A DNA stretch of 41,539 bases from NCBI GenBank assembly GCA_937125455.1, contig CAKZLK010000024.1:1-41539 (forward strand). The letters are read 5' to 3'. Positions within the stretch are counted from its first letter, which is position 1, and each line of letters begins with the position of its first letter. This document shows positions 1 to 41,539 of this stretch, piece after piece. Position numbers and translations under genes: made by a program. The DNA is from an uncultured Aequorivita sp. Lineage in GTDB: Bacteria; Bacteroidota; Bacteroidia; Flavobacteriales; Flavobacteriaceae. The notes under the pieces were generated by a model. The model worked only from the letters and a program-made list of their open reading frames with translations. It was not told the origin of the DNA and ran no database searches.

Positions 1-2
1 GT

Positions 3-227
3 TCGGGTACGGCCAGAAAGGTTGACTTGCTGCAAGTAGGCCGTATTGCCTTGCTCGCGCAAACAACAGACAAAGAAGTAACGGCAGCGTGGAGTGATGG
101 CGCATGGCAGGAGCTAGACAGCGGTAGTTACCGCGGTGCAGTTTCAAAAGGTATTCGTATTGCCAAGAAACAAGCCGCAATTGACATAATGACTTTGCCG
201 ATTCCAGCTCCGGAGGCAGCACAATGA
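3..227 (+). CDS. DUF3450 family protein, C-terminal part (5' truncated by window edge)
   Basis: The open frame runs in from the left edge (first full codon at 3) and stops at 225-227. The visible residues carry the DUF3450 tail pattern: a VDLLQVGRIALL stretch, then a QTTD turn, a conserved tryptophan, and GIRIAKKQAA before an APE-rich end. In gammaproteobacteria DUF3450 is a periplasmic coiled-coil protein encoded just upstream of the TtpC/ExbB2/ExbD2/TonB2 energy-transducing genes. The stop overlaps the next start as ATGA (224-227), which implies translational coupling. Base composition differs from the rest of the window: a hand count of 121-180 gives 29 of 60 G/C, against 21 of 60 at 1081-1140. 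The true start lies outside the window. Family assignment is from recognition of the pattern, not from a search. Confidence 0.7.
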   Translation, partial: SGTARKVDLLQVGRIALLAQTTDKEVTAAWSDGAWQELDSGSYRGAVSKGIRIAKKQAAIDIMTLPIPAPEAAQ

Positions 228-1426
228 AAAATAAAATGAAACTACTCGGCGTCGCTATTGGCGCACTCGTTCTAGCCACAACAGGCACAGTGAGCGCCCA
301 AGATAAGCCGCGATCGCTTGATCAGTTGCTACGCCTGGTTCAGCAAGGTAAAACCTCAGAAGCTCGTCAGAATGGCAAGCGCGAGGCAGAGTTTAAGCAA
401 GCGAAAAATCGTCAGGCGGCGTTGTTGAGCCAAGCTAAGCAGACGCGCGTTAATGAAGAGAATCGCAGTGCTCGTCTTGAAAAGAACTTCGAAGAAAACG
501 AAGTGTCGGTTGCCACTAAGCAGGCCGCATTGAAGGAAAAACTTGGTTCGTTGACTGAGTTGTTCGGTCACATTACGTCGGCGTCGGGTGACTTACGAGC
601 CAATCTCGAAACGTCTTTGACCAGTGTTCAGTATCCCGGTCGTGAAGTGTTTCTAGACGGGTTGGTAGAGAAGATGAGTGGCAACGACAAGCTGCCAAGC
701 ATCGAGGAAATCGAAAGACTATGGTTCGAGTTGCAGCGTGAAGCTGTTGAAACAGGCCGTATTGTTAAATTCTCCACCGAAGTATCTAAGCCAAATGGCG
801 ATACATCAACCACGGACGTTGTGCGTATTGGTAGTTTTAATATCGTTTCTGCAGACGGCCAGTATTTGAAATTCGACAATCTTGAAAACAAACTGAAAAG
901 TCAAACCACGGGAGCGAATGGAATAGGCAAAATAACCGCAGCCTGTGATCAGGCTCATGTTGTTCAGGCTTTCAAAATGGGCTATGAGAGTAATGCCGAA
1001 ACCGTACCTTCTTCAAAAAAAGGAGAAAAGAGCATACGCATAGCGCTTCGTCCAATAGACGAAATTGTGGAAGGCGATATGGTAAAACTAAACCCAATAC
1101 TATTTGACTTTGATAAGCACAATATCAAACCACAAGCAGCATTTGAACTGGATAAGTTAGTAGAACTGATGAAGAAAAATCCAGAAATGGTTATTAAAGT
1201 TGAAGGCCATACGGACAATCGCGGCACTGATGCCTATAATTTAGATTTATCAGAAAGACGTGCACGAAGCACTGTTCAATATGTAATTTCAAAAGGAATT
1301 GCTAAGGATAGAATAAGCGGAAAAGGTTTTGGTGAATCTAAACCTGCAATAGATTGTGGTAACAACTGCACCGATGAACAATATCACAAAAACAGACGTT
1401 CCGAGTTTATTATTGTAAAAAAATAA
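224..1426 (+). CDS. Chimeric ORF: TtpC/long-ExbB N-terminal region joined in frame to an OmpA C-terminal domain
   Basis: The 400-residue frame starts at ATG 224 with a GGAGG ribosome-binding site at 212-216. Residues 1-25 are a signal peptide. Residues 30-105 are a charged coiled coil of the kind found at the N-terminus of gammaproteobacterial TtpC (MotA/TolQ/ExbB family). LTSVQYPGR and LPSIEEIERLWFELQRE belong to the same domain, and VVRIGSFN near residue 205 is its last clear hallmark. From about residue 232 the protein is flavobacterial: a GYESNAETVPSSKKGE stretch, then an OmpA peptidoglycan-binding domain (about 285-400) with ILFDFDKHNIKP, GHTDNRGTDAYN, LSERRA and NRRSEF. The proton-channel membrane segments of TtpC are missing, and so is the N-terminal half of the OmpA protein. 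No single-protein family known to me has this architecture. It is most likely an assembly join near 880-945. Confidence 0.75.
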   Translation: MKNKMKLLGVAIGALVLATTGTVSAQDKPRSLDQLLRLVQQGKTSEARQNGKREAEFKQAKNRQAALLSQAKQTRVNEENRSARLEKNFEENEVSVATKQAALKEKLGSLTELFGHITSASGDLRANLETSLTSVQYPGREVFLDGLVEKMSGNDKLPSIEEIERLWFELQREAVETGRIVKFSTEVSKPNGDTSTTDVVRIGSFNIVSADGQYLKFDNLENKLKSQTTGANGIGKITAACDQAHVVQAFKMGYESNAETVPSSKKGEKSIRIALRPIDEIVEGDMVKLNPILFDFDKHNIKPQAAFELDKLVELMKKNPEMVIKVEGHTDNRGTDAYNLDLSERRARSTVQYVISKGIAKDRISGKGFGESKPAIDCGNNCTDEQYHKNRRSEFIIVKK

Positions 1427-1463
1427 GGAATCAATAGTTATTAACTGGCAACCAACCAGAAGA

Positions 1464-1506
1464 AAAAACCCTTGCTCACCACTTTCTAGGTTTTGCAGGG
1501 GTTTTT
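1464..1506. terminator. Probable bidirectional terminator after the OmpA-domain gene
   Basis: AAAACCCTTGC at the left pairs with GCAGGGGTTTTT at the right across a loop of about 19 bases, with one G-T pair. The stem is flanked by an A run on the left and a T run on the right. It can therefore serve both the OmpA-domain gene on the plus strand and the convergent DUF5689 gene on the minus strand. Confidence 0.65.
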
Positions 1507-1533
1507 GATTTTCTAGTAATAGGATTTAATTAA

Positions 1534-2973
1534 TTAATTGGAGTTTATTTCTATTTCATCAAATTCATAAGTCCCATCAAAAGCTTCATCACCACTACCC
1601 ACATATTTGAGGGCAATGTAACCGTTTCCTGAAATACAGTCCAAATCAACATTTCCCGAAGGAAACCAAGGTCCAAAAGCATCATCGTCTTGCGTTATGT
1701 ATGCAGCTGAAAGAATTTCCCAATTGGCAGAAAGAACATTATCTGGATTTCCATCCCAATCAGTTGATATAAATATTTCAAGCGTGCTTCCGTCTGCAAA
1801 ACTGTTTGATGTTTTAAAGTTTAAAGTTTCGCCTTCTTGGGCATCAAAATTTATTTGAGGAGTAATCAACCAAGCAATATTGCTGGAATCGCCGGAATTG
1901 TAAGCCTGCATTCTGGCAGAAATACCAAGAGACGGGCTGCTTCCAGTTGAGGTGAATGCCTCCCATTGTTCTGAACCAGCTTCTATATAATTTGTCCAAC
2001 CGTTTCCAGAGATGGGATCTCCTGTAGATTGCGTTTCAAAAAAATCACTGAAAAGTATATTTGTTCCCGTGGTTTCGGCTAGACCGCAATTAATTTCAGC
2101 TGGATCGCAGCGGTCTTCATTTTCAAAATAAATTGTAGAAGGGTCATTGACTGTAATGTTGAAATTTTCGCCGTAGAAATCATAGGTTAAAATTCCATCC
2201 ATCATCCCTCTTCCGGTTGGCAAAAGCACCGTTTTATAATCAGCATACGTACTTGTGCTAAAAGTTGCAGTATAACCAGAGTCACAACTCTCCAGTTTTC
2301 GTTCTGCATCAAATTGATCACCAGGCTCTGCAGCAAACGTTTTGCGATTGTCTCCCAATGCATCGTGTCGCTCAAATTGAACATCTGTCAAACGCACAAA
2401 AAGATTTGTTTTATCATCCGAAAAATCGAGAATAGAAATGGGAATTGCTTCTATTGTGGCCACATCCACATCACGGATTAGAAAATCGAAGATAGCAGAC
2501 TCTGCGATTTTATTTATAGTTGTTCCGTCTCGTAGTCCAAGAGTTAAAACTCCGCTGTTTAAACCTACAGTCAAGCCATCAAGTTTTACATACACTTTTC
2601 TTCCAAATTCAAAAGTTGTGAAAAGAGGATTCACGTCAAGCAATATTTTCACTCCAGTATTTGGGTTTGATGAACTGTTTTGAATAATTAATTCTTCAAA
2701 AAAGTTTCCGCCTTCATCACTGGAAATTACATAACCTGTAATGTATTTGTTGGTTTCTTCCAACGTTAAAATTGCATCTGGATTTTCAGTATTTGTTTGT
2801 TCCTGTAACAATAAACTTCTTAATGATGAAATTTCTATTACATCACTTGGATTGATTTCTGGTGCAATTATTTCTGTATTTGGCACATCATAATCATCGC
2901 TTTTTACACAAGAAAGTATTGCTATTAAAGTGAAGAATAGCGTAAATGGTTTGTAGAATTTTCCTGTTTTCAT
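1534..2973 (-). CDS. DUF5689 domain-containing lipoprotein with C-terminal jelly-roll-like domain
   Basis: A 479-residue surface or periplasmic lipoprotein. The lipobox is ILSC, with the lipidated cysteine at residue 22. An acidic stretch follows (SDDYDVPN), then the DUF5689 region (about 38-250), recognisable by YITGYVISSDEGGNFFEELIIQ, VYVKLDGL and VRLTDVQF. From about residue 300 a second domain resembles the cleaved-adhesin or choice-of-anchor-J fold (FFETQ, NGWTNYIE, SNIAWLITPQINF). The function is not known. In flavobacteria DUF5689 lipoproteins usually accompany TonB receptors, as here: the receptor stop lies 18 bases upstream. A GTG sits directly before the chosen ATG, but the ATG at 2973 is preferred. 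It is probably an accessory ligand-binding partner of the receptor; that role is inferred from context. Confidence 0.8.
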   Translation of the reverse strand: MKTGKFYKPFTLFFTLIAILSCVKSDDYDVPNTEIIAPEINPSDVIEISSLRSLLLQEQTNTENPDAILTLEETNKYITGYVISSDEGGNFFEELIIQNSSSNPNTGVKILLDVNPLFTTFEFGRKVYVKLDGLTVGLNSGVLTLGLRDGTTINKIAESAIFDFLIRDVDVATIEAIPISILDFSDDKTNLFVRLTDVQFERHDALGDNRKTFAAEPGDQFDAERKLESCDSGYTATFSTSTYADYKTVLLPTGRGMMDGILTYDFYGENFNITVNDPSTIYFENEDRCDPAEINCGLAETTGTNILFSDFFETQSTGDPISGNGWTNYIEAGSEQWEAFTSTGSSPSLGISARMQAYNSGDSSNIAWLITPQINFDAQEGETLNFKTSNSFADGSTLEIFISTDWDGNPDNVLSANWEILSAAYITQDDDAFGPWFPSGNVDLDCISGNGYIALKYVGSGDEAFDGTYEFDEIEINSN

Positions 2974-2991
2974 CACTAAAGTATTTATTTG

Positions 2992-5829
2992 TTAAAATCT
3001 TACGTAAAAATTTAGGTAATAAGTAGCTCCATAACCAAAGAAATATCTGTTTCCAAAAATTGGCATGTTTCTGTTCTGGTCTACCTGTACTTTTTTATAA
3101 TCTGCCAATCGCGAGTCTTCAAAACCACCCGTTTTATAGTGTTGGTCCAACACATTGCCCACGGCTGCAAAAAACCCAACGTAATAACCTTTGATTCTCC
3201 ACGATTTTCCACCAACCACATTTATGAGTATATATTCCCCAAAATCCTCTTGCTTCAAAAGGGTTTTGGCTACATCTGGATCGTAATCGCTATATGTTTG
3301 GCCGTCGCCATCAAAAGTAAAAGCGTCAGATCTTCGCAACGTGCTTACATCGATATATGCGTTTGAAAAATAGTTTCCCGTAATCCCAACCCACCAATAG
3401 GCTGGATCGCGATACTCAACACCAAATTGGTATGCTCTTTCTGGACCACTAGCTACATGATAGTTTTTCAGCTTTGTGGTTTTATCGCCGAATGTAAGAA
3501 TGTCGAAATCATCGCTGGTTAAATATTGATTCGGATTGTTCGTATAAACATTTTCTCCGAAAGCAGCGGCAGCTTTCAATTTGAATGTCGGGGTTAATTG
3601 CGCTTCAACCCCTAATTCAGCCCCCATTTTTCGAGTGTCGATTCTAGTAATTACTTCCTGCACAAAGGCGTATCCATCTTTATATCCTTGTGCAGATTCC
3701 GTGAAAAAAAAGTTGATGTCCGTTTGATTTTGAATCGTGTTGTAATATCCAGTAAGACGTGCTTTTACAATTGGCGAACGGAAAATATAGCTCAAATCCA
3801 CATTTTGAATCTTTTCAGACTCCAGCCCAATTACTGTTTCATTACTCTGCCTTGAATTGCTGAAAGCATTTCGAATTGTGGGTGCTTTGGTGAAATAACC
3901 AGCATTAAAATCAACCAAATGTCTTCCTGTTATTTTATAAAGGACGCCAGCCTTACCTCCAAAATTGGTAAAACTCAATTTTTCACTTTCCCCAAGCGAA
4001 AGATTTCCGGGAAAATTCCCATTTTCAAAAAGACCAATGCGCTGATAACTGGTTTGCGAAGCAGTTGCAGCCACATAGAAATTCATTTTGCTGTATTTAA
4101 ACTGCCCTTGCGCAAAACCTGAAATTACGTTGGCATTCAATTCAAAATTATATTTATAGCGATCGCCTTCGGTTACAATTCGGTTTCTGTTTTGCAAATC
4201 GCTTTGGGCTACATCACCGATAATTGTATTGTTTACGCCTTCGGCAAAATAATCTATATCTAAATATCCCGTTCCGCCTAAAAGATCATTCAGTTCTGCG
4301 AAGTTTTCACTTTTTAAATTACGATAGTTTAGGTTTGCATTCAGACTAATATTCTCATTAATTTGACTGTTCAAAATCATATTTGCCATTAATTGCGTGT
4401 CGTCCTGTCTATCTTCTTGAATGGCATATATTGAATTTCCACCAGTGTTGATTGCAATTCTATTGGCTTCGTAAAGCGAGCTCCAATCCAATTGTCCGTC
4501 ATTTATAAGTTCCTGTTCCGCCAAATATGCCAACTCATAATTGTAAGACGTTGGACTTTCAAAACGAAGAAAATAACTTGGTAAACGCTGGTAATAATTA
4601 GGGTACGGATTACGAGCGCCGCCAATATATGCCTGCTGTCCGTTAACTTCAATTAAACGGGTTCCTCCATAATCAATTCTGGTATTTCCAATTTTTCCAA
4701 ATTGATACCCCAGGTTTGTATTCAGGGAAGTTTTATCGCTTATATTCCAAAAATGGTTAAGCATAATCACCGGTTCTTCCACGGTTTTCATTTTTGAATT
4801 ACGAACATCGCCATTTTGATAACCCCAATTTGGATTGTAATCAATTCCTTTCAAATTTTCAACCTCAGCTGTAACGGGAGCAGATTTTCCACGGTTGTTG
4901 GGCGTATAAAATGTGGTAAAATTAAGACTGCTGTTTTCACCGAAATTTTTCTCAACGGAAGCAAAAAAAGAGTTGGCATCATAAATAGTTCCTTCCTGAA
5001 AACCGCCGTCACCAAAGCGACGCGAAAGTAAAACAGAATAAGCCCACCCTTTTTTACCTTGACCGCTATTATAGGAACCCATCACACGACCACGATAACT
5101 TCTGTTTGAAGTTGCATATGAAACCCTACCTCCCTTTCGATACTGTGAAGCGCGCATTATAATATTTGTAGTTCCTGCAACATCTCCAAAAGTATAATCA
5201 TTGGCCTGCAAACCCATAGAGAATATTTGATTGCGCTGCACATCGTTCAAGCCGCCCCAATCTGCCCATTGTGGACGTCCGTCGTATTGTTTATTCATTT
5301 CTAGACCATTTATCAGCACTTTTCCATAAGCATTGTCAAAACCGCGCGGATTGAAAAAAGTAGTGCTAAAATCATAGGCCGCTGCTCTCAAAAAAACATC
5401 ATCGGAGGCTTGCAACAGTCCCGAAACATTATAGGATGTTCCGTCATCATCATCATTTAATTCATTATCGGAAAGACTAATTATACCTATCTGCTGCTCC
5501 ACTTCGCGTAGATCGATCTCCATTAAAATAGGGTCCAAATTAATTGTAGCATCGTTCCTTATAATTATTGGTAGCTTTAAAGTTATATAGCCTACTTTTG
5601 AAATTGAAAGTATTTGTTGACCTTGCGGAAGATTTTCCTGAAGGAAATAAAACTCACCCAAAGAGTTTGTTACGGTATTGAATATACTTTCCTCTATGGT
5701 TATTTCAACATCAACAATGGGCTCATACGAATTGGTTTCCAGTACCCGTCCTTTTACAGTAGCCTCTTGGGCGAATGAAGATATTACACCCAAAAAAACC
5801 ACACAACCGATAAAAATGAAGCGTTTCAT
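2992..5829 (-). CDS. TonB-dependent receptor with CarboxypepD-like N-terminal domain
   Basis: A 945-residue outer-membrane receptor. A signal peptide ends near SSFAQ (about residue 20). A CarboxypepD regulatory-like beta domain follows (about 22-110: VKGRVLETNSYEPIVDVEITI), then an acidic linker (NELNDDDDG). The plug domain spans about 150-235 (FFNPRGFDNAYGKVLINGLEMN, GDVAGTTNIIMRA). The rest is barrel, rich in alternating aromatic and polar residues and ending in phenylalanine, as outer-membrane barrels do. It is transcribed with the downstream DUF5689 lipoprotein and diverges from a secreted EEP-family nuclease or phosphatase. No SusD is nearby, so the DUF5689 protein may play the lid or partner role. 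The substrate cannot be read from the sequence; a phosphoester or nucleic-acid product is a guess from the neighbour. Confidence 0.88.
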   Translation of the reverse strand: MKRFIFIGCVVFLGVISSFAQEATVKGRVLETNSYEPIVDVEITIEESIFNTVTNSLGEFYFLQENLPQGQQILSISKVGYITLKLPIIIRNDATINLDPILMEIDLREVEQQIGIISLSDNELNDDDDGTSYNVSGLLQASDDVFLRAAAYDFSTTFFNPRGFDNAYGKVLINGLEMNKQYDGRPQWADWGGLNDVQRNQIFSMGLQANDYTFGDVAGTTNIIMRASQYRKGGRVSYATSNRSYRGRVMGSYNSGQGKKGWAYSVLLSRRFGDGGFQEGTIYDANSFFASVEKNFGENSSLNFTTFYTPNNRGKSAPVTAEVENLKGIDYNPNWGYQNGDVRNSKMKTVEEPVIMLNHFWNISDKTSLNTNLGYQFGKIGNTRIDYGGTRLIEVNGQQAYIGGARNPYPNYYQRLPSYFLRFESPTSYNYELAYLAEQELINDGQLDWSSLYEANRIAINTGGNSIYAIQEDRQDDTQLMANMILNSQINENISLNANLNYRNLKSENFAELNDLLGGTGYLDIDYFAEGVNNTIIGDVAQSDLQNRNRIVTEGDRYKYNFELNANVISGFAQGQFKYSKMNFYVAATASQTSYQRIGLFENGNFPGNLSLGESEKLSFTNFGGKAGVLYKITGRHLVDFNAGYFTKAPTIRNAFSNSRQSNETVIGLESEKIQNVDLSYIFRSPIVKARLTGYYNTIQNQTDINFFFTESAQGYKDGYAFVQEVITRIDTRKMGAELGVEAQLTPTFKLKAAAAFGENVYTNNPNQYLTSDDFDILTFGDKTTKLKNYHVASGPERAYQFGVEYRDPAYWWVGITGNYFSNAYIDVSTLRRSDAFTFDGDGQTYSDYDPDVAKTLLKQEDFGEYILINVVGGKSWRIKGYYVGFFAAVGNVLDQHYKTGGFEDSRLADYKKVQVDQNRNMPIFGNRYFFGYGATYYLNFYVRF

Positions 5830-5949
5830 CTTTAAAAAGTGATTTTTAATTAAGGGGAGAATTTACCGGGAAGAACATAAATTTAATAAAAAAATTATTA
5901 TATATACATTAATAATGTTAACTTTTTGCTTTAAATTTTAAATTTGACA

Positions 5950-7008
5950 ATGAAAAAACTTTTTCAATACCCTCTTTTTGTTTGTTTATTCTATGTTACC
6001 TTTTCATTTTCTCAAACCGAAAAAGAGTATAAAATAAACACGATTGCTTTTTACAACCTAGAAAATTTATTTGACTATGATGATGATCCAATTACTTTTG
6101 ACGATGACAGGACGCCAGAGGGAAAAGATCACTGGACTAAAGAAATCTATCAAGCGAAGTTGGCCAATATGGCAAAAGTGATTTCTGAAATTGGTCAGGA
6201 TGTTACAGGAACTTCGCCTGCATTAATTGGCGTAAGTGAAATTGAAAATCGTCGTGTACTAGAAGATCTGCTGAATCAAAGCCCATTGCTAAACCAAGAT
6301 TACGGAATTGTACATTTTGATAGCCCAGACAGGCGCGGGATAGACGTGGCATTACTTTATCAGAAAAAATTATTTACTCCCATAGCCTCCAAGGCTTATG
6401 AATTGTTACTGTATGACGACAACGATAAAACAAAGCGGATCTATACTCGAGATCAGCTTTTGGTAAGCGGAATGCTTGATGGCGAAAAATTAAATATAAT
6501 TGTAAACCATTGGCCTTCCCGAAGCGGTGGTGAAGAAAAAAGTCGTCCAAAACGTATAAAAGCTGCGCAACTCAATAAGCACATAATAGACTCATTGTTT
6601 AGCGAAGATCCATACGCAAAAATTATAACTATGGGCGATTTAAATGACGACCCAATAAATCCAAGTGTAAAGGATGTATTGAAAACAAAAAACGAAAAAA
6701 AAGATTTGAAACTAAAAGAACTGTACAATCCAATGGAAGATATGTATAAAAAGGGAATGGGCACACTAGCCTATCGCGATGCTTGGAACCTCTTTGACCA
6801 AATAATAATTTCAACAGAACTGACAATAAAAGATTATTCTTCCTATCGTTTTTACAAAGCAGGAATTTTCAATAAAAATTATTTGACAACACCGCGAGGG
6901 AAATACAAAGGCTACCCTTTTCGAAGTTTTGTTAATGGATTTACGGGAGGGTATAGCGATCACTTTCCTGTTTATATTTATTTAATAAAGGAAAAGGTTC
7001 CGCACTAA
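5950..7008 (+). CDS. Secreted endonuclease/exonuclease/phosphatase (EEP) family protein
   Basis: A 352-residue protein with a signal peptide ending near SFSQ (residue 22), followed by the complete EEP catalytic set in order: FYNLENLFD (about 34-42), EIENR (the metal-binding glutamate), DRRGIDVALLY, NHWPSRSGG, GDLNDDP (Asp/Asn) and a terminal DHFPVY (catalytic histidine). Members hydrolyse phosphodiesters or phosphomonoesters, such as DNA, RNA or phospholipid head groups, with Mg2+. Export puts it in the periplasm or outside the cell. A TTG two codons earlier (5944) also opens the frame, but ATG 5950 followed by lysines is the natural signal-peptide start. It diverges from the TonB receptor and DUF5689 pair. 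Bond specificity cannot be decided; nuclease is the commonest role for this secreted type. Confidence 0.88.
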   Translation: MKKLFQYPLFVCLFYVTFSFSQTEKEYKINTIAFYNLENLFDYDDDPITFDDDRTPEGKDHWTKEIYQAKLANMAKVISEIGQDVTGTSPALIGVSEIENRRVLEDLLNQSPLLNQDYGIVHFDSPDRRGIDVALLYQKKLFTPIASKAYELLLYDDNDKTKRIYTRDQLLVSGMLDGEKLNIIVNHWPSRSGGEEKSRPKRIKAAQLNKHIIDSLFSEDPYAKIITMGDLNDDPINPSVKDVLKTKNEKKDLKLKELYNPMEDMYKKGMGTLAYRDAWNLFDQIIISTELTIKDYSSYRFYKAGIFNKNYLTTPRGKYKGYPFRSFVNGFTGGYSDHFPVYIYLIKEKVPH

Positions 7009-7074
7009 AAAATACAGAAATCCAAATAATCCCGAATCCGCTCAATAAAGTTGTTTTTTATTCGTTAAACATTT

Positions 7075-7476
7075 GTGTTAAAAACGCTAAAAATTCTCTT
7101 CCTATCCTTTTACACATTGGGAACTTTTTGTTTGCCCATGGGGAATTTTTCAGTACTAACAGATCTCCCCGAAATGTATAGCCACTGTAAAGCACAAGAA
7201 GATAAAGACATGACTCCTTTCGATTTTGTGACAGATCATCTTTTAAATTTTGACGGAATATTTGACAAACACGATAACGGCGACGAACAAAAACCCCACA
7301 CCCCACTCCAAACGCAGAATCATATTCAAATAACCTTATATCAATTTATAAGTCCGTTTACTCTTAAAACAACTACTTTCAAAAATATTGAACCAAAAGA
7401 AATCATTTATACTTCAGAGAATCTTTTGGTTTCCAATTACACTTCAAAGGTTTTTCACCCCCCTATAACTGCTTGA
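7075..7476 (+). CDS. Hypothetical small exported protein
   Basis: A 133-residue frame with a GTG start, a hydrophobic N-terminus (LKILFLSFYTLGTFCL) that looks like a signal peptide, and a polar acidic/His middle (FDKHDNGDEQKPHTP) before a short C-terminal FHPPI. I do not recognise a family. Its plan (signal peptide, charged middle, a double proline at the end) resembles the His-rich protein at 21690-22106, but no clear sequence identity is visible. It lies 66 bases after the EEP gene and 66 before the PepSY-like gene on the same strand. The start is uncertain, because no ATG is available near the signal peptide. Confidence 0.5.
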   Translation: MLKTLKILFLSFYTLGTFCLPMGNFSVLTDLPEMYSHCKAQEDKDMTPFDFVTDHLLNFDGIFDKHDNGDEQKPHTPLQTQNHIQITLYQFISPFTLKTTTFKNIEPKEIIYTSENLLVSNYTSKVFHPPITA

Positions 7477-41293: not shown

Positions 41294-41388
41294 ACATCAA
41301 TACTAAATTTGAAAAAGAAGGAATACTATTAATTTACTTTAATATAAATAGTATTTAGCATCAACTCTTTCTCCATTTAATATCAAAA

Positions 41389-41419
41389 AGATCGCCCGAG
41401 GAAATTCCTCGGGCGATCT
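41389..41419 (-). terminator. Terminator of the T9SS cargo gene
   Basis: A perfect 13-bp stem (AGATCGCCCGAGG with CCTCGGGCGATCT) has a 5-base loop. On the minus strand it is followed by a T run (stem-final T plus TTTT). It lies 30 bases past the stop of the gene at the right edge. Confidence 0.85.
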
Positions 41420-41449
41420 CACATTTTAACAATCAACAATTATGAAAAA

Positions 41450-41539
41450 CTATTCTTTTAATAGTCGTTTTGTTATCTGTCCGTCCTTGCCTGAGATCTT
41501 AACATAGTAAGAAGCAGCAGCAAGCTGGTGCACGTCTAT
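41450..41539 (-). CDS. T9SS type A sorting domain protein, C-terminal end only
   Basis: Only the last 29 residues and the stop (41450-41452) are inside the window. They read IDVHQLAAASYYVKISGKDG, then QITKRLLKE, the classical end of a type A (Por) C-terminal sorting domain: an alternating strand, Y-x-V-K-I, a Gly turn and a basic K-R-x-x-K tail. Such a tail directs export through the type IX secretion system. The cargo itself lies beyond the window edge. Confidence 0.85.
   Translation of the reverse strand: MDVHQLAAASYYVKISGKDGQITKRLLKE

What the first reader, a model, noticed from the sequence alone, without database searches (positions are those of the whole stretch)
880..945. In-frame join of gammaproteobacterial and flavobacterial sequence
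Up to about 890 the DNA encodes DUF3450 plus the N-terminal region of a TtpC/long-ExbB protein, with a clear Shine-Dalgarno and an ATGA overlap. After about 945 it encodes a flavobacterial OmpA domain, and base composition drops (29/60 G/C at 121-180, 21/60 at 1081-1140). The TtpC channel part and the OmpA protein's own N-terminal half are both missing. The simplest explanation is an assembly chimera between two community members; a true transfer with gene fusion would be remarkable.
Basis: partly seen in the sequence, partly recalled or inferred. Interest (0 to 1): 0.75.

Follow-up and report, generated by a model that had tools for sequence, protein, structure and literature searches.

The report
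Assembly chimera at a contig end
The odd fused gene at the start of this contig is almost certainly not a real gene: a piece of a gammaproteobacterium's gene appears stuck onto part of an ordinary Aequorivita outer-membrane gene by a sequencing or assembly error, and other contig ends of the same draft genome show the same kind of error.

Summary
The join is real in the sequence, at window 871-879, just left of the given range. It lies 0.9 kb from the left end of contig C24 (the whole window) in a 63-contig draft genome of an Aequorivita-like bacterium. Left: a DUF3450 tail and the N-terminal part of a long ExbB-type protein, 97% identical to a Pseudomonadales MAG. Right: the C-terminal part of an Aequorivita OmpA-family protein, then Aequorivita gene order. 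The missing OmpA residues 1-418 lie at the left end of contig C17, there joined to different, unidentified DNA; on Aequorivita CIP111184 the two halves are 83 bp apart. No reported match in 27 same-genus genomes reaches left of window 871 (600-2000 tested). A SulP gene is split the same way between C49 and C58, about 10 bp apart, with other foreign DNA on each end, partly Vibrio-like. C60 shows a further join. Contigs that connect overlap by exactly 77 bp, as in a k=77 assembly; the join shares at most about 9 bp. Which step made the join needs reads.

The parts
1..227 (+). Foreign: 3' end of a DUF3450 gene, cut by the contig end
   Evidence: Pfam PF11932 E 2.1e-18, profile 174-240 of 241; similar DNA stands upstream of the long ExbB gene in gammaproteobacterial MAG locus L008 (window 17-227, 81%)
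224..870 (+). Foreign: N-terminal region of a long ExbB/MotA/TolQ-type protein ('TtpC' is a recalled name); the channel part is absent
   Evidence: 97% identical to P0002 over 55% of the query; P0002 is 457 aa with PF01618; window 600-870 has no reported match in 27 same-genus genomes
871..879 (.). Junction; the switch lies within these 9 bases, which fit both sides in part (about 5 to 9 bp shared)
   Evidence: DNA alignment with Aequorivita loci L002, L003, L005 and comparison with the P0002 protein; neither the source's own DNA nor the native DNA of this genome at this spot was available, so the shared length is inferred
880..1426 (+). Native: C-terminal part of an Aequorivita OmpA-family protein (about residues 450-630 of 630)
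   Evidence: 94% identical to P0004; PF00691 E 2.5e-21; window 851-1423 matched P0004 440-630 at 92%
1427..7400 (.). Native flank in Aequorivita gene order (DUF5689 protein, a 945-aa protein and further genes)
   Evidence: L003 aligns with window 871-7400 at 88.8% in one piece; same ORFs; DUF5689

Best explanation
The fused ORF is an artefact. The assembly broke the Aequorivita OmpA-family gene at one spot, and the two contig ends that should meet there (C17 left, C24 left) each run on into unrelated DNA: Pseudomonadales-like DNA on C24, unidentified AT-rich DNA on C17. Shown: both gene parts, the gap between them as measured on relatives, the unrelated caps, and the same pattern at a second gene. 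Inferred: that the sample was a mixed community, and that chimeric library molecules or a gap-closing step made the joins, since the shared stretch (at most about 9 bp) is far below k=77. The open frame through the join needs no function; a random join keeps strand and frame in about 1 case of 6.
For: The missing OmpA residues 1-418 lie on G000:C17:1682-2935(-), 1.7 kb from that contig's end. In L003, C17 aligns down to base 5916 and the window from base 6000, leaving 83 bp; in L002 and L005, 84 bp. In one search, 25 of 27 same-genus genomes matched window 600-2000 and no match began left of 871. In one search, 24 of 27 relatives matched C17 1-3000; the gene match starts at 1681-1689 in 23 and at 1843 in one. 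SulP residues 1-175 are on C49 and 179-539 on C58, about 10 bp apart on L173. In one search, 26 of 27 relatives had a match with C58 1-2200; in 24 it starts at 1067-1072. C49's ORF joins SulP, a histidine-kinase sensor domain and a peptidase M15 domain in one frame, followed by a gene whose named relatives seen in the list are Vibrio, up to 87% (120 of 8000 listed). C60: M32 peptidase piece, then DNA shared with relatives from base 836 on (15 of 27 matched, none left of 836). The 14 exact terminal overlaps counted are all 77 bp. G000 contamination is given as 2.85%.
Against: No reads were available, so no coverage step and no lack of spanning pairs was shown. The gammaproteobacterial source was not found at DNA level: best 73% in 390 genomes drawn from the order, 98 of which matched at all; the family holds only the same two genomes. 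The C17 cap is called foreign only because relatives lack it and it starts abruptly; its source is unknown and its G+C (30-37%) is near the native 37%. Four of 27 relatives have a 39-base match and one a 46-base match in it, and one has a 42-base match in the C58 cap, all with E about 1e-4. The chimeric ends have no 77-bp overlap, but nor have most ends: 95 of 122, the native C50 end among them, so this says little. C50, GC-rich over its first 600 bases, is native, so base composition alone proves nothing.
Confidence: 0.96

Rival explanations
1. A real horizontal transfer: a large foreign segment inserted into the OmpA gene, its two edges seen at C17 left and C24 left, making a true fused gene.
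For: Both edges of one native gene carry unrelated DNA, as an insertion would give; the frame is open through the join.
Against: The two edges carry DNA of different kinds. The SulP gene would need a second, equally mosaic insertion. No same-genus match crosses the join. Integrases and terminal repeats at the edges were not searched for.
Confidence: 0.02
2. Strain mixing alone: the left end belongs to another Aequorivita strain that carries these genes.
For: The bin may hold more than one strain (contamination 2.85%).
Against: The left side is 97% identical in protein to a Pseudomonadales MAG, and window 600-870 has no reported match in 27 same-genus genomes.
Confidence: 0.01
3. Within the artefact reading: the assembler's gap closing joined short end overlaps, rather than chimeric DNA molecules in the library (confidence given the artefact).
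For: A few shared bases at the join. That some assemblers close gaps on short overlaps is recalled, not looked up.
Against: Multi-part mosaics such as C49, with three unrelated segments, fit chimeric molecules equally well.
Confidence: 0.35

Closest known systems
Inter-genome chimeric contigs in short-read metagenome assembly (known kind; one search gave a listing of papers only)
   Same: Two taxa on one contig, sharp join near a contig end, the native continuation at another contig end
   Different: Here both broken ends of the same gene are capped by unrelated DNA, twice in one assembly; the cause was not traced in reads
Chimeric library molecules joined at microhomology (start of the abstract of PMC8674242, seen in the listing)
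   Same: Unrelated DNA joined at a few shared bases
   Different: That paper treats formalin-fixed tumour samples; the sample here is unknown
Aequorivita OmpA-family protein (630 aa, P0004)
   Same: The native right side is its C-terminal part, 94% identical
   Different: The rest is on another contig; the best NCBIfam models (CHU_0125 OmpA, PorE) score below their cut-offs

Membership tests
Assembly or library chimera | The two sides match different taxa | tested here: met
   Pseudomonadales MAG protein at 97% versus Aequorivita at 94%
Assembly or library chimera | The native continuation exists elsewhere in the same assembly | tested here: met
   OmpA residues 1-418 on C17; 83-84 bp gap on three relatives
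Assembly or library chimera | Join absent from relatives | tested here: met
   25 of 27 same-genus genomes matched, no match left of window 871 (window 600-2000 given); none of the other 119 listed proteins covers more than 58% of the query (120 of 4019 listed)
Assembly or library chimera | Similar joins recur in the assembly | tested here: met
   C17, C58, C49 and C60 ends; C50 tested and native. Six of 126 ends were followed closely, five capped by unrelated DNA: C24 was given, C58, C60 and C50 were picked for GC steps, C17 and C49 because they hold the other part of a split gene; no rate can be drawn from this
Assembly or library chimera | Coverage step or no proper spanning pairs at the join | not testable with these tools
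   No reads available
Transferred gene fusion | Same fusion in an independent genome | tested here: not met
   Not seen (120 of 4019 listed; 8 loci; 27 relatives)
Transferred gene fusion | Inserted segment coherent, from one donor | tested here: inconclusive
   The C17 and C24 caps differ in base composition, 30-37% versus 49.5% G+C, and in content, but the source of the C17 cap is unknown

The most novel reading that the evidence does not exclude
A recent insertion of gammaproteobacterial DNA into the Aequorivita OmpA gene made a working fusion of a long ExbB N-terminal domain with a peptidoglycan-binding OmpA domain.
Probability: 0.02. Interest if true: 0.6.

Novelty: not a real feature. Interest (0 to 1): 0.06.

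Why it matters
It matters as a warning. This draft genome, rated 99.97% complete, carries unrelated caps at several contig ends that make false fused genes and false gene transfers. Trimming about 0.9 kb from C24, 1.7 kb from C17, 1.1 kb from C58, 0.8 kb from C60 and 2.5 kb from C49 would remove the cases found here.

Tried and rejected
Source genome of the left side: no close DNA match in 390 genomes drawn from the order or in the family (2 genomes); the best protein lies on an NCBI contig that I could not reach. Source of the C17 cap: the one ORF tried had no phage match by tblastn and no relative in viral contigs; the other had one weak PHROG match (E 1.5e-4). A recalled likeness to crAss-like phage is therefore unconfirmed. 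GC steps as evidence: rejected as sufficient, because C50 is GC-rich at its end but native. Lack of a 77-bp overlap as evidence: rejected, because 95 of 122 ends have none. In-frame joining as a sign of function: rejected. Three joins keep the frame (one in C24, two in C49), while the C58 join is to a gene on the opposite strand. Papers: listings and abstract beginnings only; no paper was opened.

Full report
What is there. The window is the whole of contig C24 (41,539 bp) in a genome of 3.73 Mb and 63 contigs, completeness 99.97, contamination 2.85. An open frame runs from 224 to 1426. Its N-terminal 55% matches a MotA/TolQ/ExbB protein of a Pseudomonadales MAG at 97% (P0002, 457 aa), and its last 46% matches Aequorivita OmpA-family proteins at up to 94% (P0004, 630 aa). 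A DUF3450 tail stands in front of it; similar DNA stands at that place in the gammaproteobacterial locus L008. DNA alignment puts the switch at 871-879. All nine bases match Aequorivita L003; in L002 and L005 the match is shorter on the left. They are also compatible with the codons of P0002, whose DNA I did not have. About 5 to 9 bases are therefore shared; this is inferred.

Where the rest of the gene is. Residues 1-418 of the Aequorivita OmpA protein are on contig C17, bases 1682-2935 on the minus strand, preceded by the same 305-aa gene as in L003. In L003 the C17 side ends at 5916 and the C24 side begins at 6000. C17 bases 1-1681 are something else: AT-rich DNA with two plus-strand ORFs (398-1697) and a minus-strand ORF (3-365), none with a Pfam match. 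Its source is unknown. So both ends that should meet in this gene run into unrelated DNA, of different kinds.

Relatives. Of 27 other genomes of the genus, 25 matched window 600-2000 and no match began left of window 871 (window 1-599 was not given to that search). With C17 1-3000, 24 of 27 matched; similarity began at 1681-1689 in 23 and at 1843 in one, apart from stray matches of 39 bases (four genomes) and 46 bases (one) further left. Among the 120 proteins listed of 4019 found, no other covers more than 58% of the fused query. In genome contigs, 8 loci matched, six on the Aequorivita side and two on the gammaproteobacterial side, none on both.

It is not the only one. Contig C58 begins with about 1,066 bp holding an ABM-domain gene and a GntR/UTRA regulator, then a SulP gene cut at its N-terminus. 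Of 27 relatives, 26 had a match with C58 1-2200; in 24 it starts at 1067-1072, one has only a short match further right, and one only 42 bases in the cap. SulP residues 1-175 are on C49, about 10 bp away on the relative L173. There the frame runs on into a histidine-kinase sensor domain and a peptidase M15 domain, and a gene follows whose named relatives seen in the list are Vibrio at up to 87% (120 of 8000 listed). C60 starts with about 835 bp of an M32 peptidase gene, whose two closest proteins are unnamed at 80%. C50, also GC-rich at its end, is native. I read the ORFs of ten ends and followed six of 126 ends closely: C24, C17, C58, C49, C60 and C50. Five of these six are capped by unrelated DNA. 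They were not drawn at random, so this is no estimate of the rate.

How it arose. Among 122 readable ends, 14 pairs overlap exactly, all by 77 bp; two of these pairs are the two ends of one contig. That fits a de Bruijn assembly with k=77 (general knowledge). None of the five capped ends has such an overlap, but 95 of the 122 ends have none, so this is weak. A shared stretch of at most about 9 bp cannot join paths at k=77, so the join needs either chimeric molecules in the reads or a gap-closing step; this is inference. In-frame continuation has a chance of about 1 in 6 per random join and needs no function.

Verdict. It should not be read as gene transfer.

Noticed in passing
G000:C17 1-1681 (L021): Second capped end: AT-rich unidentified DNA (two plus-strand ORFs, no Pfam match), then an ORF on the other strand, possibly from a further source.
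   Followed up: partly
G000:C49 right end (L144:2471-5000) and G000:C58 left end (L108:1-1066): SulP transporter gene split between two contigs, each capped by unrelated DNA; C49 has a false 472-aa ORF of three unrelated domains and Vibrio-like DNA after it.
   Followed up: yes
G000:C60 1-835 (L110): Piece of an M32 carboxypeptidase gene, 56% G+C, joined to 36% G+C native DNA.
   Followed up: partly
G000:C21 right end (L126, last 1.2 kb): GC-rich tail (49-58%) with a Gly-Tyr-Asp repeat ORF and a DUF6948 domain; may be another foreign cap or a mobile element.
   Followed up: partly
G000:C10 (44,026 bp) and G000:C44 (6,865 bp): Each contig's two ends overlap exactly by 77 bp, so both may be circular (plasmid or phage) or repeats.
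   Followed up: no
window 41387-41539: The right end of the window repeats at 99% over 153 bp near the end of contig C52, and in part at C54 and C55; a repeat may explain that contig break.
   Followed up: no
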